The notes under the pieces are model-generated. The model searched no databases, had not been told where the DNA came from, and saw only the letters and a program-made list of their open reading frames with translations. From contig JAAFKL010000402.1 of the NCBI GenBank assembly GCA_021399405.1, positions 1-16,157 of the forward strand: a stretch of 16,157 bases of DNA. Direction: 5' to 3'. This DNA comes from Candidatus Heimdallarchaeota archaeon. GTDB taxonomy: Archaea > Asgardarchaeota > Heimdallarchaeia > Heimdallarchaeales > Kariarchaeaceae. This document shows positions 1 to 16,062 of the stretch, one piece after another. The position numbers and the translations under genes were made by a program. The first letter of the stretch is position 1. The number at the start of each line of letters is the position of its first letter.

Positions 1-344
1 CCTGAGCTGTGAGACATGAAATGTTTTAATTTAATCTCATTCTCTTTGCCATTCAGTTGCAATGGTAGGTGCTTGGAGATCGGATCATCAATTGACAATT
101 GTCCTCGTTCCGCCAGCATTAGCATGGCCAAACAGGTGAAGGACTTGCTTAATGATCCAACATTGAATATTGATTGATTATTACATTCACTTGGATTATC
201 AACAGCAAGGGTCCCATAGCTTTTTGCATAGGCAGTCTCCTCGGTGGTCAATATCCCAATCGAGAAACCAATACTCTTCTTCTCAGAGAGTAAATCAGAT
301 ACAAGCCCATCTATTCTCCCAAAATTGTCTCTGTGTAGTTCCAC
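1..344 (-). CDS. Serine beta-lactamase-like hydrolase, N-terminal part (cut by window edge)
   Basis: The reverse strand reads an open frame of 114 codons from a GTG at 344-342 to the window edge, so only the N-terminal third is present. The product looks like the class C beta-lactamase/penicillin-binding-protein family of serine hydrolases. There is a first strand pair (SIGFSIGILTTEE), then FNVGSLSKSFT carrying the SxxK nucleophile motif (S-L-S-K), then helix LAMLMLAERGQLSIDDPISKHLP and the LKHFMSHSSG segment typical just after it. The YxN and HxG motifs would lie outside the window. An in-frame stop at 353-351 sits three codons upstream of the GTG, and no ATG fits the family start, so GTG is the likely start. 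No signal peptide is visible, so the enzyme may be cytoplasmic. The substrate cannot be told (esterase, peptidase or amidase). Confidence 0.8.
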   Translation of the reverse strand, partial: MELHRDNFGRIDGLVSDLLSEKKSIGFSIGILTTEETAYAKSYGTLAVDNPSECNNQSIFNVGSLSKSFTCLAMLMLAERGQLSIDDPISKHLPLQLNGKENEIKLKHFMSHSS

Positions 345-2312: not shown

Positions 2313-3065
2313 ATGGTCTCAACTGCCATCATGAGTTTGAAGAAGCACATTTGGATGATGATTCCAATCTTGGTAATTCTGCTTTCAGGCACTTTGTTAG
2401 TAAATGGAAATACTGTTTGGCAGGATACATTTGATGATTCCAACTCACTTGATAATTATGAGATTGTCAATGGTGAACTTCGATCAGATGGTGTTTTAAC
2501 CTCTCTAGGTTGTGATTCAGTGGATTGCGTAGTTGGTTCAGCTGCATTTTATCGTAACAGTTTGGGATCCACCGGGACCTGGAGCTTCGATTTTAACCTT
2601 ACTTCAAACTTTAATATTTATTTTATTGGCATTGGTAAAGTCTCTGGACATGCATTATTTCCCAAAGAGGGCTATAATCTCATAATTCGTCCATCTCTAA
2701 AATTGGTAGTACTAGATTATGTCACCTCACCCATCACCAACCTTGCTAGCTATGAATCAAACATATCCCTAGTCGGTTGGATGCATATTGATATCACTCG
2801 TGATGAATCTGGAAATATAATTGTTTACCTTGATGGAAACGCAATAATAGAGACCACACAGAAAGATTTAACCAATTCTGAACATATTAATATTCAGTTA
2901 TCTAAGGATTCACAGCTTGATAACCTAATTTATAGCAATTCAGTAGATTTACCAACTGAAAAATCGAACAATGACGATAGTCCAATAATGATGAACATTA
3001 TTCTTTCTGCCCTTATTCTCGTTGTTTTCAATCGAAAGATCAAAAATTATCGACAACAGCTCTGA
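2313..3065 (+). CDS. Exported LamG-like beta-sandwich protein with C-terminal membrane anchor
   Basis: This predicted surface protein has 250 residues. A signal peptide is formed by a basic start (SLKKH) and the hydrophobic run MMIPILVILLSGTLLV. The ectodomain begins DTFDDSNSLDNYEIVNGELRSDG, the usual opening of LamG/DUF1080-type concanavalin-like sandwiches, and continues with alternating strands. VYLDGNAI near residue 171 is the typical late strand. C67 and C72 could form a disulfide. A short anchor (225-239) is followed by a basic tail. ATG 2331 (MSLKKHIW) is an alternative and perhaps better start, because a TATA-like CTATAGAT lies at 2291-2298. The 3' end overlaps the convergent zinc-ribbon gene by 26 nt. 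The ligand (glycan or other) is unknown, and no catalytic residues are recognisable. Confidence 0.75.
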   Translation: MVSTAIMSLKKHIWMMIPILVILLSGTLLVNGNTVWQDTFDDSNSLDNYEIVNGELRSDGVLTSLGCDSVDCVVGSAAFYRNSLGSTGTWSFDFNLTSNFNIYFIGIGKVSGHALFPKEGYNLIIRPSLKLVVLDYVTSPITNLASYESNISLVGWMHIDITRDESGNIIVYLDGNAIIETTQKDLTNSEHINIQLSKDSQLDNLIYSNSVDLPTEKSNNDDSPIMMNIILSALILVVFNRKIKNYRQQL

Positions 3066-3897
3066 TAAACATGGTATTGTAAATTGTGAATAACCACACC
3101 ATAATCGCTGTAGTAGCGAATAATAATAAACACAAGGAATATCCATAACCAGTCATACTACGATAGTAAACAACCGCATGGATGGCAAGAAATATGACTA
3201 TAAGGATTGTAAGAGTAGTAAATATGATTTGTACCAGTTCCAGCCCCTCTTTTCCCTCAAAAATGTACACGTAGATCATGGTGGGATAAATGAATAAATC
3301 CTTGACAATAAGCGTTATACTCCACAATCCAAAGTATCTGGAGTTAATTTTCAAACCCGTGTGTACTTCGACAGACTCAAATACAAGTTTAGTAAAAACC
3401 ACAGCCCCGAACAGCACCATCATATGTCCCCATGCCAATTGGATAAATAATTTAATCCCCTCCTTTACTGTTCCCCCTTCACCAAATATGGCTTCTACCA
3501 GGAGAAAAGTAAGAGCAAAAAATAAACTGGATACCACAATGAGCAGTGTACTCATAGTGCTGAAGCTCTCATTACTCACAATACTGACAGTAGAGTCAGT
3601 ATCAAATCTAAGACTAGAGGTAACCGTTTTCCTGGTCAATTTTTCTTGATGTGGGAGTAGAAGTATTTTGTCTACTTTCTTTGTTTTCATAGCAGGTCGA
3701 GGTGTAATTACAGCTTTTATTTGCTGATCTGCAGTGCAAAATGGACAAAATTTACTATCTAAAGGGATCAAAGCGAAACATCTGGTACAATTAACATTTC
3801 CTTCAACTATAGGGGTCCCACAAATATTACATGCTCGCCAGCCTAGATTGATTTCTGCACTACAATTACTACAATTTCCAATTCTACTGCCAGTCAC
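3040..3897 (-). CDS. Double zinc-ribbon, five-helix membrane protein (possibly Yip1-like)
   Basis: A cytosolic N terminus carries two zinc ribbons as four CxxC knuckles: C9/C12 with C23/C26, and C37/C40 with C51/C54. A polar linker (60-112) follows, then five predicted membrane helices (about 115-137, 148-170, 188-212, 221-246, 252-274). Zinc ribbons joined to a five-helix membrane domain recall archaeal zinc-ribbon/Yip1-domain proteins, but no diagnostic Yip1 residue can be pointed to, so that name is only a suggestion. The start is GTG at 3897, just after the stop of the upstream gene at 3901. A GGAGGG purine run lies at the end of that gene. The tight spacing implies co-transcription and perhaps a joint complex. 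The 3' end overlaps the convergent LamG-like gene. Confidence 0.72.
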   Translation of the reverse strand: MTGSRIGNCSNCSAEINLGWRACNICGTPIVEGNVNCTRCFALIPLDSKFCPFCTADQQIKAVITPRPAMKTKKVDKILLLPHQEKLTRKTVTSSLRFDTDSTVSIVSNESFSTMSTLLIVVSSLFFALTFLLVEAIFGEGGTVKEGIKLFIQLAWGHMMVLFGAVVFTKLVFESVEVHTGLKINSRYFGLWSITLIVKDLFIYPTMIYVYIFEGKEGLELVQIIFTTLTILIVIFLAIHAVVYYRSMTGYGYSLCLLLFATTAIMVWLFTIYNTMFIRAVVDNF

Positions 3898-3900
3898 CTT

Positions 3901-4614
3901 TCAAACTTCCCTCCCAAGCGGTAATTGTATAAAAATCCGTAAAATTTGATAATTGAAGGTCCAGGTAAGGAAAAATGCAAATACAGAAATTGTGAAGGCA
4001 AGTATTTGGGTATCTTCACGCTCTTTTGGTCGATTCAACCGATCCACAACAATAGGAATCAACAAGATAATGGTCAAAATCCATAAAATACCGTCTAATA
4101 CAAAAAATGGGGTTTCATTGCTTTGAGTATCAAATCCCTCTTCTTGGAATAATATTTTTCCATACTCAACGAGAGCAAATAATATATAGAGTAAATCTCT
4201 CAATATTGCAAACTGAGCAACTAGAGTCACATTATACATCACAATTGTTGTGTCTCTTTCTTCAGTACCCTTGAAAATGTAAGAATATGCGAAGTACAAC
4301 AGTGGATAGAAGGTCATGGTCAATATTGCAGTAATGATAATTACAAGTGGGTCAACCTCTCCCATCACAAATTGTCCAGGCTCAGTCGGTTTACTCGCTT
4401 CCCAATAGCTATCTAACCGTCTACGGATGATTTCACGGATAGCTGAAGTGATTCCAGCAATTATCAGAGTAACTATTAAAACCCGTTTAACATCTTCCCA
4501 GTCTCTCTCATCCCTGAAATTGGCAAAAAATACACCCCATTTTGATAAATAATTAGATTTTACACTCTCAGAAGTCGTAGACATAAAATTCAGTATAAAA
4601 TTTTCGTTCATCAA
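3901..4614 (-). CDS. Five-helix integral membrane protein, unknown function
   Basis: The product is a 237-residue membrane protein with a hydrophilic N terminus rich in charged residues (FRDERDWEDVKR) and about five helices (near 43-60, 89-114, 126-150, 170-191, 203-230). A charged loop (61-87) separates the first two. It is the first gene of a two-gene unit with the zinc-ribbon protein, 3 nt apart. The matching helix count suggests the two could be distant relatives or partners in a membrane complex. ATG 4614 is taken as start, and an internal ATG at 4584 is possible. I do not recognise a named family. A Yip1-like fold is conceivable from helix count and the aromatic/charged N terminus, but unproven. 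No catalytic motif is seen. Confidence 0.65.
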   Translation of the reverse strand: MMNENFILNFMSTTSESVKSNYLSKWGVFFANFRDERDWEDVKRVLIVTLIIAGITSAIREIIRRRLDSYWEASKPTEPGQFVMGEVDPLVIIITAILTMTFYPLLYFAYSYIFKGTEERDTTIVMYNVTLVAQFAILRDLLYILFALVEYGKILFQEEGFDTQSNETPFFVLDGILWILTIILLIPIVVDRLNRPKEREDTQILAFTISVFAFFLTWTFNYQILRIFIQLPLGREV

Positions 4615-4799: not shown

Positions 4800-5465
4800 A
4801 TGAGCAATTTAAGGAATCTAAAATATTTTGTTCCTTTGGTTTTATTGTTTTTTACACCAATCTCAGCATCGATTCATCTAGCACCCAGTATAGTCGATAA
4901 ACCAGATGACCTAATTTACGAGGTAGGGATGACAAACAACATACTGGTATGGGTATTTCAAGCTGGGGAATCTAATGATGATCCCAGTAAGTACACTGCT
5001 AAACTGGATGGGGTTCCAATTGTAAATCATACACTTGCTGACTGGAGTGATCTCACAGAAATAGTGATTAATGTAGATGGGCTGGCTTTGGGAAGTTATG
5101 TTGTATCCATAGAAGTCAACGATACTGGGACGGACGCATTGCAAGCAGCTTCAGCTTTTGATAGCGTAAATGTACACGTAGTTGAGGACACGGCAAATCC
5201 CTTTCCATCAACAATGTCCACCATAACAGCAACACCAACAACCGAAACCACTTCGGCAACATCGACTACTACAACTGCAGTTTCCACATCAAATCCTGTC
5301 TCAGAGGCTGTCGACAGAATTAATGAGGGTAAAACATCAGTATCAGATAGTAAAACAACAGACTCGACATCGAGTGTAAGCCTACCAAACTCATTTTACT
5401 CGATAACTATTTCTCTCCTTTCAGTAGGTATATTAACAAGGCGTATGAGGACCCGATATGCGTAA
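4800..5465 (+). CDS. Surface protein: Ig-like domain, Ser/Thr stalk, C-terminal anchor (paralog 1)
   Basis: A 221-residue exported protein. The signal peptide (1-24) is LKYFVPLVLLFFTPISAS. One Ig-like beta-sandwich (about 33-129) holds DLIYEV, NNILVW, DWSD and the strong VDGLALGSY motif (92-100). A Ser/Thr-rich, probably glycosylated stalk (136-195) is followed by a short hydrophobic segment (198-213) with an Arg-rich end, suggesting a membrane anchor with the ectodomain outside. The downstream gene is a paralog with the same layout: the pair shares DLxYEV, LxW, DWxD, IVxxVDGLAxGSY and IE. The 3' end overlaps the next ATG by 8 nt, so the two are translated from one message. This Ig style is common in Asgard archaeal exported proteins. 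Partner or ligand is unknown. Confidence 0.75.
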   Translation: MSNLRNLKYFVPLVLLFFTPISASIHLAPSIVDKPDDLIYEVGMTNNILVWVFQAGESNDDPSKYTAKLDGVPIVNHTLADWSDLTEIVINVDGLALGSYVVSIEVNDTGTDALQAASAFDSVNVHVVEDTANPFPSTMSTITATPTTETTSATSTTTTAVSTSNPVSEAVDRINEGKTSVSDSKTTDSTSSVSLPNSFYSITISLLSVGILTRRMRTRYA

Positions 5466-6018
5466 AATAGGATTACTTTCTATTATTTTTCTTACGATGC
5501 TCTTGATGGGTCAGACCTCTCTGGCTGCGGTTCACTTGCCTCCTAAGGCGATAAAAAAGGCAGCGGACCTCAGCTATGAGGTAGATACGACTGGTAACAC
5601 CTTGATTTGGCAATATGAGGCCGAAGAAGGGGCTGATTTACCAGGAACCTATATTGTTTTCATGGATAATGTTGCACTTGTAGAGCATGATGGAGTTGAT
5701 TGGGAAGATAAGGTAGATATTGTCGTTGATGTTGATGGTTTGGCAATCGGTAGCTATACTTTCAAAATAGAAATCACGGATCATGATACCAGTGATGAGG
5801 CAGCAATAACCACATCAGATGAAGCATTAGTCACCGTAGTTGCAGAATTAGCCACATCATCTTCCACCAGCACTTCCTCCTCACCTATGGGCACAACTAG
5901 TACTCCTGAGAGTAGTACGGAATCCGATACTAATCTGCTCTTTGTTCCATTTTTAGCCATGTTACTGGCAATTGGCATTGGTGTACCAATTCTAAAATAC
6001 AAAGATTTCAAACAATAA
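5458..6018 (+). CDS. Surface protein: Ig-like domain, Ser/Thr stalk, C-terminal anchor (paralog 2)
   Basis: A 186-residue exported protein, paralogous to the gene it overlaps. The signal peptide (1-24) is MRKIGLLSIIFLTMLLMG then QTSLAA. The Ig-like domain (36-128) carries DLSYEV, NTLIW, DWED and VDGLAIGSY. The Ser/Thr stalk (131-158) is about half the length of the first paralog's. A clearer membrane helix follows (159-179) with a KYKDFK tail. The Ig domain is more acidic than in paralog 1. The ATG lies inside the stop region of the upstream gene, so expression is probably coupled. Its stop abuts the stop of the convergent gene with no gap (6018/6019). The pair may form a heteromer at the surface, by analogy only. 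Confidence 0.75.
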   Translation: MRKIGLLSIIFLTMLLMGQTSLAAVHLPPKAIKKAADLSYEVDTTGNTLIWQYEAEEGADLPGTYIVFMDNVALVEHDGVDWEDKVDIVVDVDGLAIGSYTFKIEITDHDTSDEAAITTSDEALVTVVAELATSSSTSTSSSPMGTTSTPESSTESDTNLLFVPFLAMLLAIGIGVPILKYKDFKQ

Positions 6019-9235: not shown

Positions 9236-10882
9236 GTGACAAAGAAAAAACCAGTCATACTTGTTGTCGATGACGAGGTAGAGGTTCTAAACGCAATCAT
9301 TCGTGATTTTCGTTCCAAGTACGGTAAAGAATATCGGATTGTAAAAGCAACATCTGGTGAGGAAGCTTTAGAAGTAACTGAAAGTCTCAAACAAAGAGGG
9401 ATCAACATTGCCCTCATTGCTAGTGATCAAAGAATGCCAGGAATTGATGGTACTGAATTTTTAGAAGAAGCAATTAAATTATACCCTCAATGCAAAAGGA
9501 TTCTTCTTACTGCATATGCCGATACACAAGCGGCGATTCAAAGTATCAATGATATTGGTCTTGACTATTATCTAGTCAAACCATGGGATCCACCTGAACA
9601 ACATTTGTTTCCAATTGTTGATGATTTACTTTTTGATTGGGAAGCAACAAGTGATTTGGAATATACAGGAATTCGAGTTGCAGGATATTTGTGGTCCTCT
9701 GCTTGCCATATAGTAAAAGATTTTCTTGCTAGAAATTTGATCCCCTACCAATGGTTAGATCTCGAACTTGATGAAGAGCATCAATCATTAGTAAAAACAA
9801 TTACTGATGACTTAAATCAAACACCAATTGTATTCTTTCCTGATGGTGAGAAATTAATACAACCAACTATAGATGAATTAGCAAAGAAGATTGGTCTACA
9901 TACTGATGCAAAGGCACCTTTCTATGATTTAATCGTGATAGGTGCAGGTCCAGCAGGACTAGCAGCAGGTGTCTATGGTGCGGCTGAGGGTCTTAATACC
10001 ATAGTAATTGAAAAAGAAGCTCCGGGAGGTCAAGCTGGTACAAGCTCAAGGATTGAAAACTATCTTGGTTTTCCCAAAGGATTGAGTGGTGCAGATTTAA
10101 CCAGACGTGCTGTGGCACAGGTTGAACGCTTGGGTGCTGAATTACTGCTAACCAAGGAAGTTATGAAAGTTACTATTAATGATAATTATAAGATTGTTAA
10201 ATTAAATGACGGTGTAGAATTAAGATCCAGAGCTTTGATGGTAGCAACAGGGGTTGAAGTAAATGAATTCAAGGTACCTGGGATAGAAAAACTAAGTGGT
10301 TCAGGTGTTTATTATGGTGCTTCACTCACCGAGGCTGCCTCTTATCGAGAAAAAGAGGTATTCGTGCTTGGTGGTGGAAATAGTGCAGGTCAAGGAGCAA
10401 TGTTCTTCTCTCTCTATGCTTCGAAGGTACATGTGGTGATCCGAAAACCCAATCTTGAGGAAACAATGTCAAAGTATCTAATCGATAGAATTGATGCTGC
10501 AGAAAATGTTGATCTTGTTGCTGATACTGAGATTACTGAATTAATTGGAGAAGATAGGTTGGAGCAACTAATCCTGTGTAACAAGATTAGCGGAGATACG
10601 AAAACTGTAGAAGCATCTGCACTTTTCATCTTTATTGGTGCTCGCCCTAGAACTCAAATGATTAAAGATTTCGTTGAGCATGATGAATTAGGTTTTATCA
10701 AAACGGATAGTTCCTTGGATAAGTGGAAGCAGAAACGTGCTCCCTTCCATTTCGAAACCACAACTCCTGGGATTTTCGCAGTGGGTGATGTACGTTCTGG
10801 ATCCAGTAAACGAGTTGCAGCAGCTGTTGGTGAAGGTGCAGTTGCTGTGCAGATGATCCACAGATATATATCAACGGTTTAG
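9236..10882 (+). CDS. Response-regulator receiver / glutaredoxin-like / thioredoxin-reductase-like flavoprotein fusion
   Basis: A 548-residue cytosolic protein of three modules. Residues 5-130 form a receiver: acidic pair D12/D13, phospho-acceptor D64 in ASDQRMPG, T92 and K115 in VKPW. Residues 148-222 resemble glutaredoxin (SSACHIVKDFLARNLIPYQW and the TPIVFF cis-Pro strand), but the CPYC site reads SSAC, leaving only C157. Residues 230-548 are a thioredoxin-reductase-like FAD/NAD(P)H oxidoreductase: FAD GAGPAG (236-241), nucleotide site GGGNSAG (379-385) and the second FAD motif IFAVGD (513-518). The redox CxxC expected near 361-367 reads GASLTEA, and C86, C157 and C448 are the only cysteines. 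It is therefore not a classical thioredoxin reductase. Receiver/TrxR fusions are known in bacteria. The partner kinase gene starts 10 nt downstream. GTG start; no upstream alternative fits. Confidence 0.9.
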   Translation: MTKKKPVILVVDDEVEVLNAIIRDFRSKYGKEYRIVKATSGEEALEVTESLKQRGINIALIASDQRMPGIDGTEFLEEAIKLYPQCKRILLTAYADTQAAIQSINDIGLDYYLVKPWDPPEQHLFPIVDDLLFDWEATSDLEYTGIRVAGYLWSSACHIVKDFLARNLIPYQWLDLELDEEHQSLVKTITDDLNQTPIVFFPDGEKLIQPTIDELAKKIGLHTDAKAPFYDLIVIGAGPAGLAAGVYGAAEGLNTIVIEKEAPGGQAGTSSRIENYLGFPKGLSGADLTRRAVAQVERLGAELLLTKEVMKVTINDNYKIVKLNDGVELRSRALMVATGVEVNEFKVPGIEKLSGSGVYYGASLTEAASYREKEVFVLGGGNSAGQGAMFFSLYASKVHVVIRKPNLEETMSKYLIDRIDAAENVDLVADTEITELIGEDRLEQLILCNKISGDTKTVEASALFIFIGARPRTQMIKDFVEHDELGFIKTDSSLDKWKQKRAPFHFETTTPGIFAVGDVRSGSSKRVAAAVGEGAVAVQMIHRYISTV

Positions 10883-10892
10883 GTGATATTTT

Positions 10893-12737
10893 ATGGAAAG
10901 ATCAGATTTTATTAAGAGTGTGGACCTTTTTTCAGGTCTTAATAAAACAGATATAAATCAGCTTTGTGCTATCTCAGACGATATACACTTCTCTCCTGGT
11001 GATATGTTGTTTAATGAGGGAGAATTCTCAAATACAGCATATATTATTCAAGAAGGTCAAATTGAAGTATTCAAGTCCCATGGGGGTCGAAATGTGTTAC
11101 TGGCTGTTCGAAGTGTAGGCGAAATTGTTGGAGAATCTTCAATTTTTGAGGAAAAGCAACACGAATCTACAGCTATAGCAAGATCAGAGGTCAAGGTTAT
11201 CTCAATTAACAAAGAACAGATGGATAAATTGACTGAAATGAGTCCTCATGCTTCGAGAGCAATGTTTCATACAGTTCTATCCAGACTTAGATCAAGACAG
11301 AGACTTTTACAGCAAAGTGAAAAAATGGCTCAGTTAGGCACTCTATCTGCGGGTTTGGCTCATGAATTAAATAATCCTAGTTCAGCTGTTTCGAGAGGTG
11401 CAAGTCAGATGTCAGAAGCCATGGATAAACTATTAGCATCTGCAAGAGAGGTTCAAGATCACACATACACCACAGAACAGCAAAGTTATGTCGAAGAGCT
11501 GGTAAGATTGGTTAAAAGTAGCTCTCTCAACCCTCCAGATATGGATTCTGTGACCCGGGCAGATTTGGAAGAAGTTATAGAAGACTATCTTGAAGAGCAT
11601 AATGTTGAAAATGCTTGGGAACACGCTCCCCAGTTGGCTAATATGAATCCCGCAGCCTCTCAATTTGAGAAATTATCCAATCTCTTTGATAGCAATGAAA
11701 TTAATCGATTAATCACTTATTTTAGCAATATGGTGATGGTTTACAGCTTATTTACTGAAGTGTATCATGGGGCAGATCGGATCGGATCAATCGTGAGCGC
11801 TTTGAAGGAGTATTCCTACCTAGATCAGGCTCCTGTGGGTGAAATTGATCTGCATAAGGGGCTTAACAATACTTTGGTCATTCTGAGAAATAAGTTGAAA
11901 GATGGAATCAAGGTAATAAAGGATTATGACACCTCGATTCCTAAGGTGGAAGCCTATGGAAGTGAATTGAACCAAGTCTGGACCAATCTCATTGATAATG
12001 CCGCCTATGCAGTTGATGGAGCGGGTGAAATCACTATTAAAACAAGATTGAACAGTGATTGGGTAACCATCGAGATCAGAGATAATGGTGCAGGAATACC
12101 AGAAGATGTGAAAAAACGGATATTTGAACCATTCTTCACCACAAAGCCTGTTGGCAAGGGTAGTGGGCTAGGTTTGGATATAAGCTATAACATCATTGTC
12201 AACAAGCATATGGGGGACTTAAAGGTATTCTCTCAACCAGGAAACACCTGTTTTAGGGTCATATTACCGGTTAATTTTGCTACATTAAAATCCGGTACAT
12301 CACCCATAGATTTACTTCTGACGCCTTCTGATGAGAAATTAATAGATATTTTGAAATCAACTAAGCAGATCGCAGTAGTGGGGATTTCCCGAGACGAGAA
12401 TCAACCCTCTAATTCCATTTCGAAATATTTGATAGAACATGATTACAATATTATACCTGTAAATCCTAATTATGGAGAAGTATTGGGTAAGAGAGCCTAT
12501 CCTGACCTAACACAAATAGATGATAAAATAGATGTAATACTTGTATTTCGTCAAAGTGAAGCCGTCCTATCCATTGTGAATGATGCAATTGAAATGACTC
12601 ACAAACCCCGAATTATTTGGATGCAGGAAGGAATTATTAATGACGAGGCAGCTGAATTGGGGCTTTCTCATGGAATTGATGTAGTTATGAATCAATGTAT
12701 GAGGATTAATCATCAGCGTCTTAAGAAACATATTTGA
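10893..12737 (+). CDS. cNMP-binding-like / histidine kinase / CoA-binding domain fusion
   Basis: A 614-residue soluble sensor kinase and likely partner of the upstream receiver. Residues 10-125 form a CAP_ED (cyclic-nucleotide-type) barrel with GEIVGESSIF, but the usual phosphate-binding Arg is replaced (HESTAIA), so the ligand may differ. The dimerisation helix carries the phospho-acceptor H157 in GLAHELNNP. About 110 extra residues (170-285) separate it from the second helix (GADRIGSIVSALKEY). The ATPase domain has N365/N369 (N box), DNGAGIP (397-403), FEPFFTTK (411-418) and GKGSGLGL (421-428). Residues about 482-614 are a CoA-binding/YccU-type Rossmann domain: VVGISR, IPVNPNYGEVLGKRAYPDL, DVILVFRQSEAV, IIWMQEGI and a final NQCM. 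This last domain on a histidine kinase is unusual. ATG is preceded by GGTGAT at a suitable distance. No membrane segment. Confidence 0.9.
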   Translation: MERSDFIKSVDLFSGLNKTDINQLCAISDDIHFSPGDMLFNEGEFSNTAYIIQEGQIEVFKSHGGRNVLLAVRSVGEIVGESSIFEEKQHESTAIARSEVKVISINKEQMDKLTEMSPHASRAMFHTVLSRLRSRQRLLQQSEKMAQLGTLSAGLAHELNNPSSAVSRGASQMSEAMDKLLASAREVQDHTYTTEQQSYVEELVRLVKSSSLNPPDMDSVTRADLEEVIEDYLEEHNVENAWEHAPQLANMNPAASQFEKLSNLFDSNEINRLITYFSNMVMVYSLFTEVYHGADRIGSIVSALKEYSYLDQAPVGEIDLHKGLNNTLVILRNKLKDGIKVIKDYDTSIPKVEAYGSELNQVWTNLIDNAAYAVDGAGEITIKTRLNSDWVTIEIRDNGAGIPEDVKKRIFEPFFTTKPVGKGSGLGLDISYNIIVNKHMGDLKVFSQPGNTCFRVILPVNFATLKSGTSPIDLLLTPSDEKLIDILKSTKQIAVVGISRDENQPSNSISKYLIEHDYNIIPVNPNYGEVLGKRAYPDLTQIDDKIDVILVFRQSEAVLSIVNDAIEMTHKPRIIWMQEGIINDEAAELGLSHGIDVVMNQCMRINHQRLKKHI

Positions 12738-12817: not shown

Positions 12818-13102
12818 ATGGCAAGAGCAGAATGGAATGGCCAAATAATTGCAGAAAGTGAAGATTTTGAGGTTGTTGAGGGTAATATCTACTTTCCTCC
12901 TCAAGCAATAAACAATGAATTTTTCAAACAAAGCGATAATCAAACAACTTGTTTTTGGAAAGGAGTTGCCTCATACTACAATATCGAGGTAGATGGGAAA
13001 ACCAATGTAGATGCAGCCTGGTATTATCCAGATCCAAGTGCAAAGGCCAACAATATCAAGGATTATATTGCATTTTGGAAAGGAGTGTCTGTAACCCGCT
13101 AA
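12818..13102 (+). CDS. DUF427 family small protein
   Basis: A 94-residue protein that nearly fills a single DUF427 domain. It has ARAEWNGQIIAESEDFEVVEGNIYFPP at the N terminus, TTCFWKGVASYYNIEVDG in the middle and AAWYYPDPSAKANNIKDYIAFW at the end, the conserved segments of the family. The molecular function of DUF427 is unknown; it is a small mostly-beta cytosolic fold. A GTG at 12809 would add three residues, but ATG 12818 matches the family start and the TATA spacing. It lies between the redox-signalling pair and the ergothioneine genes on the same strand. Two FWKG segments (near residues 46 and 87) come from related strands. Its single Cys (in TTCFW) is not part of a metal motif. Confidence 0.85.
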   Translation: MARAEWNGQIIAESEDFEVVEGNIYFPPQAINNEFFKQSDNQTTCFWKGVASYYNIEVDGKTNVDAAWYYPDPSAKANNIKDYIAFWKGVSVTR

Positions 13103-13606: not shown

Positions 13607-14905
13607 ATGCTAGAAGAGATCGACATTGCCAACCCAAAAACAAAAAATGAATACTTAGATTATTACAAACGCATTCGAGCGAGGACCGAGAAACTTGCAG
13701 AGCCACTGGAAAAAGAAGATTATGTGATACAAGCGGTAACCGATGCAAGTCCAGCAAAATGGCATCTCGCACATGTTTCCTGGTTTTATGAAACCTTCAT
13801 TCTCAAGGGTTTTGATGCTGGTTACAAACCACTTAATGAGATGTATAATTTTATCTTCAACTCATACTACAATGATGTTGGAGAATTTTTCCCAAGGCCT
13901 ATGAGGGGTACTTTGTCTCGTCCAACAGTATCAGAGGTGTATGATTTCAGAAAGTATATTGACGATTCTATGCTAAATGTTCTAGATGGCATCACGGATA
14001 ATAGTATATTGCAAACATTTACAATTCTTGGAGGAAATCATGAACAACAACATCAAGAATTGATGATGACGGATATCAAACATAATTTTGGATCAAATCC
14101 ATTGTTTCCAGTATACAAACCCACACCCACACTTGATGAAAAAGATAGTGAACCAGTTTCTAAGATGACTTTCATTCCCTTTGAGGGTGGAATCAGTGAA
14201 ATTGGTAACAAGTCAGAAGGCTTCGCTTTTGACAATGAGATGCCTGTTAACAAAGTATATCTCAATGATTACAAACTAGCTAACAGATTGGTAACCAATG
14301 GTGAATTCATCAAAATGATAGAAGCAGGAGTTTACCAAGATTTCAAATATTGGTTATCTGATGGTTGGGACATAGTCAAGCGAGACGAATGGAAAGCACC
14401 ATTACATTGGCATAAGATAAATGATGAATGGCATACATTCACACTGGCAGGTCTGAAAAAAATAAATCTAAACGAACCAGTAACCCATGTTTCATACTTT
14501 GAAGCTGATGCGTATGCTAAATTTGTGAATAAAAGATTACCCAGAGAAACAGAGTGGGAAAATGCAGCACTTAAATCCAATCTTACTCCAGCAGAAGGTA
14601 ATTTCTATGAAACAGGATATTTACACCCCAAGGTAGTGGATCTAGAAAAAGCAAATGAAGGAGATAAACTATTACAAATGTATGGTGACGTATGGGAATG
14701 GACTGGTTCCGCCTATCTACCATACCCTGGTTTCTCTGTATTAGCCGAAGGAGTATCTGAATACAACGGTAAATTCATGAATGCACAATGGGTATTGAAA
14801 GGAGGGTCATGTGTGACTCCGATTGATCACATCAGAACCAGCTATCGTAACTTCTTCCAGAGTGATAAACAATGGCAATTCACAGGTATTAGATTGGCAG
14901 AATAA
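13607..14905 (+). CDS. egtB: Hercynine oxygenase / ergothioneine sulfoxide synthase EgtB
   Basis: A 432-residue non-haem iron enzyme that joins hercynine to cysteine or gamma-glutamylcysteine through an O2-dependent C-S bond. The N-terminal DinB-like bundle (about 10-165) provides the iron ligands: H56 in WHLAHVSWFYETF, and H145/H149 in NHEQQHQELMM. The C-terminal formylglycine-generating-enzyme-like domain (185-432) shows EMPVNKVYL, PVTHVSYFEADAYAKFV, LPRETEWENAA, GDVWEWT, YPGF, LKGGS, RTSYRNFF and TGIRL, all family hallmarks. Length is usual. Whether the sulfur donor is Cys or gamma-Glu-Cys cannot be read safely here, but no EgtA or EgtC gene is adjacent. EgtD follows 125 nt downstream on the same strand, completing the core pathway. 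The enzyme needs oxygen, suggesting at least intermittent oxic life. ATG start with no clear Shine-Dalgarno. Confidence 0.93.
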   Translation: MLEEIDIANPKTKNEYLDYYKRIRARTEKLAEPLEKEDYVIQAVTDASPAKWHLAHVSWFYETFILKGFDAGYKPLNEMYNFIFNSYYNDVGEFFPRPMRGTLSRPTVSEVYDFRKYIDDSMLNVLDGITDNSILQTFTILGGNHEQQHQELMMTDIKHNFGSNPLFPVYKPTPTLDEKDSEPVSKMTFIPFEGGISEIGNKSEGFAFDNEMPVNKVYLNDYKLANRLVTNGEFIKMIEAGVYQDFKYWLSDGWDIVKRDEWKAPLHWHKINDEWHTFTLAGLKKINLNEPVTHVSYFEADAYAKFVNKRLPRETEWENAALKSNLTPAEGNFYETGYLHPKVVDLEKANEGDKLLQMYGDVWEWTGSAYLPYPGFSVLAEGVSEYNGKFMNAQWVLKGGSCVTPIDHIRTSYRNFFQSDKQWQFTGIRLAE

Positions 14906-15030: not shown

Positions 15031-16062
15031 GTGATAATATTGGTAGCAAAATACATTAAATTACAACAAGAAGATGAAAAAACAGCATCAGCAAGATTTG
15101 CAAAAGATGTATTTTTAGGATTTATGAGAACACAAAAAATCTTGCAAAGCAAATACATGTATGATACAGTTGGAAGTCAAATTTATGAAGAGATAATGGA
15201 TCTAGATGATTATTATTTAGTTAAAGCAGAATATGATTCCTTGGAGAATTCAAAAACAAAACTAGCAGAATTATTTTCAACAAAAAAGGTTAATTTAATT
15301 GAATTAGGTGCAGGTAACGGATACAAGACAAAAATACTTCTTCAGGCAATGATAGAAAAAAATATCAATTTACGATATACTCCAGTTGATATTTCCGAAG
15401 GAGCAATGATAGAACTTATCGATTCTCTTAATACTGGATTTCCTACACTGAAAGCAGAAGGTTTAGTTGCAGATTATTTTGATGCATTAGAATATTTAGA
15501 AGAACATCGAGAGCCTGATGTCCATAATATTGTATTATTTCTAGGCTCTAATATTGGTAATTTTGATTTTGACGATGCTGTGGATTTCATTTTCTCGTTA
15601 TGGAGATCATTGAAAATTGGTGATTTTGTTTTTATGGGCTTTGATTTGAGAAAAGATATCGATATGATGATTGCTGCTTACAACGATAATAAAGGGGTTA
15701 CAAGCAAATTTAATCTGAATGTTCTAAATAGAATTAATCGAGAACTAGGGGGAGATTTCGATACCACTAAATTCAAACATTACGAACCTTATAATGTTAA
15801 TACTGGGGCCATGGAGAGCTATTTAATTAGTCTAGAAGATCAAGTTGTGAATATAAAATCAATCGATCGTGCGTTTCATTTCAAGAAATGGGAACCAATT
15901 TTTATGGAACATAGTTACAAATATTCGAAGGAAGATATTGTTAATTTAGCTAATATTACTGGTTTTAGAGTTGAGGGTTTCTTTTATGACGATAACAAAT
16001 ATTTTGTCAATTCATTGTGGTGTGTTAAACCCAAAGACAATATTGAGCAGCACAATATTTGA
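15031..16062 (+). CDS. egtD: L-histidine N-alpha-methyltransferase EgtD
   Basis: A 343-residue SAM-dependent enzyme that trimethylates histidine to hercynine, the EgtB substrate. Family segments appear in order: KYMYDTVGSQIYEEI (41-55), DDYYLVKAE (59-67), SAM motif LIELGAGNGYKT (89-100), PVDIS (118-122), VLFLGSNIGNF (168-178), FDLRKD, AYNDNKGVTSKFNLNVLNRINRELGGDF, the histidine-pocket ME pair (M261/E262) and MEHSYKYS (292-299) with E293 and S295. The usual GE before that last motif is WE (287-288), a small change. Length is slightly above the usual 320. GTG 15031 is the annotated start; TTG 15040 is an alternative, since the first residues (MIIL) are not conserved. It forms the ergothioneine core with the gene 125 nt upstream. 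Product could stop at hercynine if EgtB were inactive, but EgtB looks intact. Confidence 0.92.
   Translation: MIILVAKYIKLQQEDEKTASARFAKDVFLGFMRTQKILQSKYMYDTVGSQIYEEIMDLDDYYLVKAEYDSLENSKTKLAELFSTKKVNLIELGAGNGYKTKILLQAMIEKNINLRYTPVDISEGAMIELIDSLNTGFPTLKAEGLVADYFDALEYLEEHREPDVHNIVLFLGSNIGNFDFDDAVDFIFSLWRSLKIGDFVFMGFDLRKDIDMMIAAYNDNKGVTSKFNLNVLNRINRELGGDFDTTKFKHYEPYNVNTGAMESYLISLEDQVVNIKSIDRAFHFKKWEPIFMEHSYKYSKEDIVNLANITGFRVEGFFYDDNKYFVNSLWCVKPKDNIEQHNI

What the first reader, a model, noticed from the sequence alone, without database searches (positions are those of the whole stretch)
10893..12737. Histidine kinase with a C-terminal CoA-binding (YccU-type) domain and an N-terminal cNMP-like sensor
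The kinase core is complete (H157, N, G1, F and G2 boxes) and is followed by a full CoA-binding-type Rossmann domain with its hallmark segments (VVGIS, VNPNYGEVLG, VFRQSEAV, WMQEG, final Cys). Free-standing YccU-like domains bind CoA or nucleotides. I know of no standard architecture placing one at the end of a histidine kinase. It could make the kinase respond to CoA, acyl-CoA, CoA disulfide or NAD(P)-type status, linking metabolism or redox state to phosphorylation of the partner receiver.
Basis: partly seen in the sequence, partly recalled or inferred. Interest (0 to 1): 0.75.

Follow-up and report, generated by a model that had tools for sequence, protein, structure and literature searches.

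The report
CoA-domain sensor kinase in Asgard archaeon
A real sensor kinase with a CoA-binding domain at its tail sits beside its likely target, a phosphorylatable flavin enzyme, on what looks like an Asgard archaeal contig; the same design is common in bacteria, from which it was probably borrowed, and what it senses has yet to be tested.

Summary
In detail: 10893-12737 is one intact 614-aa ORF with a cNMP-like domain, a complete histidine-kinase core and a C-terminal CoA_binding_2 (YccU/PH1109-type) domain. The claim that this architecture is unknown does not hold: 118 of the 120 listed relatives carry the same three Pfam domains. The nearest named relatives are Kariarchaeaceae and Heimdallarchaeota.

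Ten bases upstream lies REC + glutaredoxin-like + thioredoxin-reductase-like (9236-10882). In 37 kinase loci from Chloroflexota genomes that partner is upstream on the same strand in 30; the CoA domain is fused in 2, a separate ORF just behind the kinase in 6, not found in 29. A tree nests the Asgard proteins in a mainly fused clade that holds named bacteria. The partner lacks the thioredoxin-reductase CxxC in 120 of 120 aligned homologues. The three Asgard kinases covering the site lack the usual cNMP-pocket Arg.

Best reading: a soluble two-component system in which CoA or CoA-thiol status tunes a kinase that phosphorylates a non-thiol flavoenzyme. Ligand, phosphotransfer and enzyme activity are inferred. 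A variant of a known kind.

The parts
9236..10882 (+). Partner: REC (about 1-138) + glutaredoxin-like (about 145-226) + thioredoxin-reductase-like flavoprotein (about 229-546), 548 aa, GTG start; D64/T92/K115 phosphorylation site kept, CxxC absent
10893..12737 (+). Sensor histidine kinase: cNMP-like + DHp/CA + CoA_binding_2, 614 aa
10986..11234 (+). cNMP-binding-like domain (residues 32-114); pocket Arg replaced (H90, E91)
11361..11363 (+). Phospho-acceptor H157 in the AHELNNP H-box
   Evidence: H in 120 of 120
11460..11690 (+). Helical insert in the dimerisation domain (about residues 190-266), the least conserved part of the kinase core
11964..12272 (+). HATPase_c catalytic domain (residues 358-460)
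12363..12713 (+). CoA_binding_2 domain (residues 491-607)
12696..12698 (+). C602, conserved Cys near the end of the CoA domain
   Evidence: C in 119 of 120, one row gapped

Best explanation
A soluble, two-gene two-component system. The kinase (H157) is predicted to phosphorylate D64 of the REC domain of the upstream flavoprotein and so switch its activity or partners. The C-terminal CoA_binding_2 domain is an added regulatory input, predicted to bind CoA or a CoA derivative (a mixed disulfide at C602 being possible) and to bias the kinase. The core pair, cNMP-HK plus REC-Grx-TrxR-like, is widespread in bacteria; the CoA domain joined it in some lineages as a gene behind the kinase and in others as a fusion, and the fused form passed to Kariarchaeota-type Asgard archaea, where the cNMP pocket lost its Arg. 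Shown: domains, conserved catalytic residues, gene order, separate and fused states, nesting in the tree. Inferred: ligand, direction of the effect, phosphotransfer, what the flavoprotein reduces, direction of transfer between domains of life.
For: Domains and residues. REC D12, D13 and D64 in 119 and T92 and K115 in 120 of 120 aligned partners. Genes 10 bases apart. The listed relatives of the two proteins share nine longest-contig lengths, the window's own 16157 included, among them those of the four nearest kinases P0002-P0005 (equal length taken as same contig). Partner upstream on the same strand in 30 of 37 loci (29, one in the wider stretch) and just before the kinase on Nostoc, Gloeothece, Streptomyces and Paraburkholderia plasmids. 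CoA domain fused in 2 and separate just behind the kinase in 6 of 37; in L042 and L043 a possible ATG of the separate ORF overlaps the kinase's end. CoA domain nearly as conserved as the catalytic domain (mean majority frequency 0.75 against 0.79, 118 rows). Window, P0002 and P0004 form a 100/100 clade inside a 38-row, mainly fused clade (100/99) that holds named Chloroflexota and Bipolaricaulia rows. The flanking FKBP's first named relatives are Thermococcus, and its best-ranked relative on a contig over 1 kb lies on a 16263-base contig, the length of that of the Kariarchaeaceae kinase.
Against: No ligand, kinase or phosphotransfer data. 29 of 37 loci, and all six plasmid kinases fetched, have no CoA domain in the stretch looked at, so it is dispensable for the basic system; the 37 were picked by similarity to a fused query, which would favour fused ones. 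Five of 37 loci have no partner nearby and two have it on the opposite strand. Domain placement is not modelled with confidence (pTM 0.51).
Confidence: 0.5

Rival explanations
1. The C-terminal domain belongs to the enzyme side, not the sensor side: it holds CoA (or a CoA disulfide or persulfide) for the flavoprotein, the kinase serving as the scaffold that brings both together.
For: The CoA domain occurs with the gene pair both as a separate gene and as a fusion. The downstream EgtB and EgtD-like genes point to another small thiol. C602 conserved in 119 of 120.
Against: No Cys at the CxxC positions of the flavoprotein in 120 of 120 homologues; the most Cys-rich column of the partner has Cys in 73 of 120, so thiol-disulfide exchange by the usual route is unlikely. 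The window's own partner does have a Cys at 157 of the glutaredoxin-like part.
Confidence: 0.15
2. The domain binds a nucleotide other than CoA (NAD(P), ADP, a dinucleotide) and reports energy or pyridine-nucleotide status.
For: Rossmann-type fold; CoA binding by this domain family is recalled from solved relatives, not tested here; R553, M577 and G580 are V, F and N in PH1109 (alignment).
Against: The closest solved relatives of this segment by sequence are PH1109, entries deposited as CoA-binding proteins, and TT1466, and the fold matches PH1109 at 0.9 A.
Confidence: 0.2
3. The domain is structural only: it stabilises the kinase or mediates assembly, with no ligand signal.
For: Many homologues do without it (29 of 37).
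Against: Its hallmark residues are nearly as conserved as the catalytic core, unlike the linker before it (0.75 and 0.79 against 0.48).
Confidence: 0.12
4. The window's kinase is bacterial contamination in an archaeal bin.
For: Only two kinase relatives in the list carry an Asgard name (P0002, P0004); the same doubt was raised in print for REC-TrxR genes of Heimdallarchaeota (PMC5847659, passage).
Confidence: 0.05

Closest known systems
REC-thioredoxin reductase response regulators ('Mycobacterium-like'), noted in two Heimdallarchaeota by PMC5847659 (listing and passages seen; supplements not seen)
   Same: The partner gene is of this kind, and the window looks to come from the same archaeal group.
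   Different: In that paper's main text CoA and cNMP do not occur, so the kinase half is not described there in those terms; here the reductase part is found to lack CxxC.
CoA_binding_2 / PH1109 / YccU proteins (PF13380; 2d59, 2d5a, 3q9n, 2duw)
   Same: Profile 121.5 bits, best solved match by sequence, 0.9 A fold match.
   Different: Single-domain chains of about 140 residues in those entries; here C-terminal to a kinase.
Hybrid histidine kinases (C-terminal REC)
   Same: An alpha/beta domain placed after the catalytic domain.
   Different: No Response_reg match in the kinase.
Thioredoxin reductase / AhpF
   Same: The partner's fold and FAD/NAD(P) segments.
   Different: No CxxC; fused to REC.
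Asgard two-component kinases surveyed in PMC10343646 (abstract, outline and passages seen)
   Same: Same archaeal group.
   Different: That survey reports only PAS and catalytic domains for its Heimdallarchaeota kinases; CoA and cyclic nucleotide do not occur in its main text.

Membership tests
Histidine kinase | H-box His, N, G1, F and G2 boxes | tested here: met
Histidine kinase | Autophosphorylation and phosphotransfer | not testable with these tools
   needs protein
CoA_binding_2 (PF13380) | Profile score above gathering cut-off | tested here: met
   121.5 against 22.8 bits
CoA_binding_2 (PF13380) | PH1109-type fold | tested here: met
   2d59, 0.9 A over 134 columns, TMt 0.91
CoA_binding_2 (PF13380) | CoA is bound | not testable with these tools
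   needs protein
Cyclic-nucleotide-binding domain (PF00027) | Profile score above cut-off | tested here: met
   64.5 against 27.5 bits
Cyclic-nucleotide-binding domain (PF00027) | Phosphate-binding Arg of the pocket (role recalled) | tested here: not met
   H90 in the window; Y in P0002, Q in P0004; R in 116 of 120, one row gapped
Response regulator (partner) | Acidic pair, phospho-Asp, Thr and Lys | tested here: met
   D12, D13, D64 in 119 of 120 (one gapped), T92 and K115 in 120 of 120
Thioredoxin reductase (partner) | Redox-active CxxC | tested here: not met
   Residue 361 Gly in 120 of 120; 364 (365 in another printed alignment) never Cys; also no Cys at 361 or 364 in 41 of 41 rows from fetched loci, four genomes counted twice
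Glutaredoxin (partner middle domain) | CxxC active site | tested here: not met
   S154 in 120 of 120; residue 157 is S in 75 and C in 41, and C in the window itself (SxxC)
Hybrid histidine kinase | C-terminal REC | tested here: not met

The most novel reading that the evidence does not exclude
A cytosolic CoA-thiol sensor: the kinase reads free CoA against CoA disulfide (perhaps by CoAlation of C602) and phosphorylates a flavin reductase that has abandoned the usual thiol chemistry, giving direct kinase control of an electron-transfer enzyme by CoA redox state. An Asgard archaeon acquired it from bacteria and, its cNMP pocket being defunct, relies on the CoA input alone.
Probability: 0.2. Interest if true: 0.65.

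Novelty: new variant of a known kind. Interest (0 to 1): 0.42.

Why it matters
If the domain senses CoA, this is a direct wire from central metabolism or thiol redox state to a phosphorylated enzyme rather than to transcription, and the separate and fused versions give ready-made test material. The Asgard case adds a bacterial-type signalling gene pair with archaeal neighbours, bearing on a doubt about contamination that is in print.

Tried and rejected
Frameshift or joined-gene artefact: rejected, near relatives keep the fusion. Unique architecture: rejected. Thioredoxin reductase activity of the partner: rejected as a label because CxxC is absent. Loss of the cNMP Arg as an Asgard-only event: too strong; among 74 kinase cores position 90 is R in 57, and distant bacterial rows lack it too, two of them (L052, L053) because that region there reads like a receiver and not a cNMP domain. 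RNA element in the window: 0 Rfam matches at gathering score.

Literature (open-licence PMC papers only, all 10 searches used): 0 papers; 1 (PMC10343646, passages seen); 8 and 1 (of these only PMC5847659 opened, passages seen); 2 (listing only); one search matched 1,189 papers on either of two terms, of which the 10 listed are about acyl-CoA-binding proteins, a different family, and none of the 10 holds PH1109.

A link between losing the CoA domain and losing the partner (L010, L011, L023, L025 have neither and form one 100/100 clade) rests on a single event and is not used as evidence.

Full report
OBSERVATION. The window encodes one uninterrupted 614-aa protein at 10893-12737. Pfam finds cNMP_binding at 32-114, HATPase_c at 358-460 and CoA_binding_2 at 491-607, all above cut-off. 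In 120 aligned homologues (the window plus the other 119 of the 120 listed) H157, N160, N161, N365, N369, D397, G399, F415, T416, T417, K418, G423, G425 and G427 are in 120 of 120; in the CoA domain G497, F552, W576, G580, C602 and R604 are in 119 and R553 and Q578 in 118. The AlphaFold model (50 of those 120 rows) has mean pLDDT 81.7 but pTM 0.51, so domains are credible and their mutual placement is not. Foldseek matches the C-terminal part to PH1109 entries 2d59 (0.9 A, 134 columns) and 2d5a (1.7 A); by sequence PH1109 is also the top solved hit.

NOT A RARE ARCHITECTURE. Of the 120 listed, 118 carry PF00027, PF02518 and PF13380 together; the two others are a 506-aa entry without the cNMP match (P0003) and a 482-aa entry named 'partial' without the CoA match (P0004). 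Named sources are Kariarchaeaceae, Heimdallarchaeota LC_2, Chloroflexota including Anaerolineae, and Bipolaricaulia. That the window is Asgard is inferred from its nearest named relatives; no whole genome is held for it.

PARTNER. The upstream gene (9236-10882, 10 bases before the kinase) is REC, a glutaredoxin-like stretch (weak mycoredoxin match at 150-219, below that family's cut-off) and a thioredoxin-reductase-like flavoprotein; its model (42 of 120 rows, pLDDT 82.4, pTM 0.67) matches thioredoxin reductases. The listed relatives of kinase and partner share nine longest-contig lengths: the window's own, 16263, 11748, 61762 and 112305 (the four nearest kinases) and four more (119 of 120 partner values typed). 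Equal length is taken as the same contig and could be chance for the short ones. In 120 aligned partners REC D64, T92 and K115 stand in 119, 120 and 120. The positions that align with the CxxC of 7jyp are Gly361 in 120 of 120 and residue 364, which is L, V, M, I or T and never Cys; 4zn0 aligns its second Cys with residue 365, also never Cys. The glutaredoxin-like site is S154 in 120 of 120 with S (75) or C (41) at 157; the window has C there. Thioredoxin reductase is thus right as a fold and doubtful as an activity.

SURVEY. In 150 genomes of the class of G005 (its locus is titled Anaerolineae bacterium), 9 had a kinase hit at E<=1e-100; in 400 genomes of the phylum of G109, 30 had one at E<=1e-80 (the two sets overlap). 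I examined 37 kinase loci, one for each of 37 genomes (L010, L011, L022-L029, L040-L066); a second, lower-ranked place in G239 was given no locus and was not examined. All were chosen by similarity to the window's fused kinase. The REC-flavoprotein is upstream on the same strand in 29 plus one more in a wider stretch (L030 for L022, small opposite-strand ORFs between), on the opposite strand in 2, and not found in 5, wider stretches included. The CoA domain is fused in 2, a separate same-strand ORF within 243 bases behind the kinase stop in 4 and overlapping it in 2, and not found in 29. In L042 an ATG in the CoA frame overlaps the kinase stop (ATGA), and in L043 one starts 8 bases before the stop codon; start codons are not proven, but these look like coupled gene boundaries rather than sequencing slips. 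On plasmids the kinase without CoA domain lies directly behind the flavoprotein in Nostoc, Gloeothece and Streptomyces, annotated as 'FAD-dependent oxidoreductase' and 'ATP-binding protein', and in an unannotated Paraburkholderia record. In Deinococcus the matched kinase lies 5.6 kb from the flavoprotein while another 'ATP-binding protein' follows it directly, and in Mycolicibacterium no partner was found in the stretch. I fetched 6 stretches, from 6 of the 16 records with a match.

HISTORY. A tree of 74 kinase cores (the window, 30 of the 119 other listed proteins, 43 loci) puts the window with P0002 and P0004 (100/100), then P0005 (100/99) and P0006 (100/95), inside a clade of 38 rows (100/99) of which 32 were labelled fused; P0004, a partial entry, was so labelled although its record shows no CoA domain. 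L040 is fused but lies in another clade with three separate-gene loci (100/100). The fused state needs 4 changes on the tree, at least 3 forced by well-supported branches. I read this as two fusions and two later losses, and as transfer from bacteria to archaea; the root is a midpoint, so direction is inference. The flanking FKBP (1719-2222) has its best-ranked relative on a contig over 1 kb on one of 16263 bases, the length of the Kariarchaeaceae kinase's contig, and its first named relatives are Thermococcus, with a bacterial name further down. This argues against contamination, the doubt raised in PMC5847659 for bacterial-type response regulators of such archaea (passages).

INPUT DOMAINS. 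Family members mostly carry the pocket pattern G[ED]..GE.....R.A[ST]; position 90 is Arg in 116 of 120, the exceptions being the window (H), P0002 (Y), P0004 (Q) and P0003 (gap). Among 74 cores it is Arg in 57, so loss also occurs in distant bacterial rows. Without the two incomplete rows P0003 and P0004, the CoA domain has mean majority frequency 0.75, the catalytic domain 0.79, the cNMP domain 0.75, and the linker before the CoA domain 0.48. Fused CoA domains, separate ones behind kinases, and CoA ORFs elsewhere (L003-L006, L014, L019) share the same hallmark segments with small variations.

MECHANISM. Shown: architecture, conserved catalytic residues on both proteins, gene order, separate and fused CoA domain. 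Inferred: a CoA-type ligand (from the domain family), regulation of the kinase by it, phosphotransfer to D64, and a hydride-transfer activity of the flavoprotein on an unknown acceptor. Rivals are listed with their tests.

CONTEXT. Downstream lie DUF427 (12818-13102), EgtB (13607-14905; 530.5 bits, cut-off 360) and an EgtD-like gene (15031-16062; 275.3 bits, just under the NCBIfam cut-off of 290.9). Ergothioneine genes beside a CoA-domain kinase fit a small-thiol theme, but 504 bases without a clear ORF separate DUF427 from EgtB, so a common operon is not shown.

VERDICT. Observation confirmed, interpretation partly supported. The architecture is common in sequence databases, and I found no description of its function with the searches made.

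Noticed in passing
window 13607-14905 and 15031-16062: Ergothioneine biosynthesis genes EgtB (530.5 bits) and EgtD-like on a contig that looks Asgard, with a DUF427 gene before them.
   Followed up: partly
window 9236-10882: The 'thioredoxin reductase' part of this REC fusion has a YYGA segment (120 of 120) where the CxxC should be; the usual name of the family may mislead.
   Followed up: yes
window 4800-5465 and 5458-6018: Two overlapping, similar-looking predicted secreted proteins with Ser/Thr-rich stretches and a C-terminal hydrophobic segment (by eye); no convincing Pfam match.
   Followed up: no
window 3040-3897 (-) and 3901-4614 (-): A zinc-ribbon protein with hydrophobic stretches and a second hydrophobic protein side by side.
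   Followed up: no
window 3-344 (-): Gene of the PF00144 class (beta-lactamase/esterase fold) cut off at the contig edge.
   Followed up: no
L052 and L053: Relatives in which the N-terminal stretch reads like a receiver domain in place of the cNMP domain, with the flavoprotein on the opposite strand.
   Followed up: partly
L030 5948-7116: Small opposite-strand ORFs, one resembling a PIN-type toxin by eye, between flavoprotein and kinase.
   Followed up: no
L069 5422-5775: In Streptomyces a UBP-type zinc-finger gene follows the kinase, where some Chloroflexota loci have the CoA gene.
   Followed up: no
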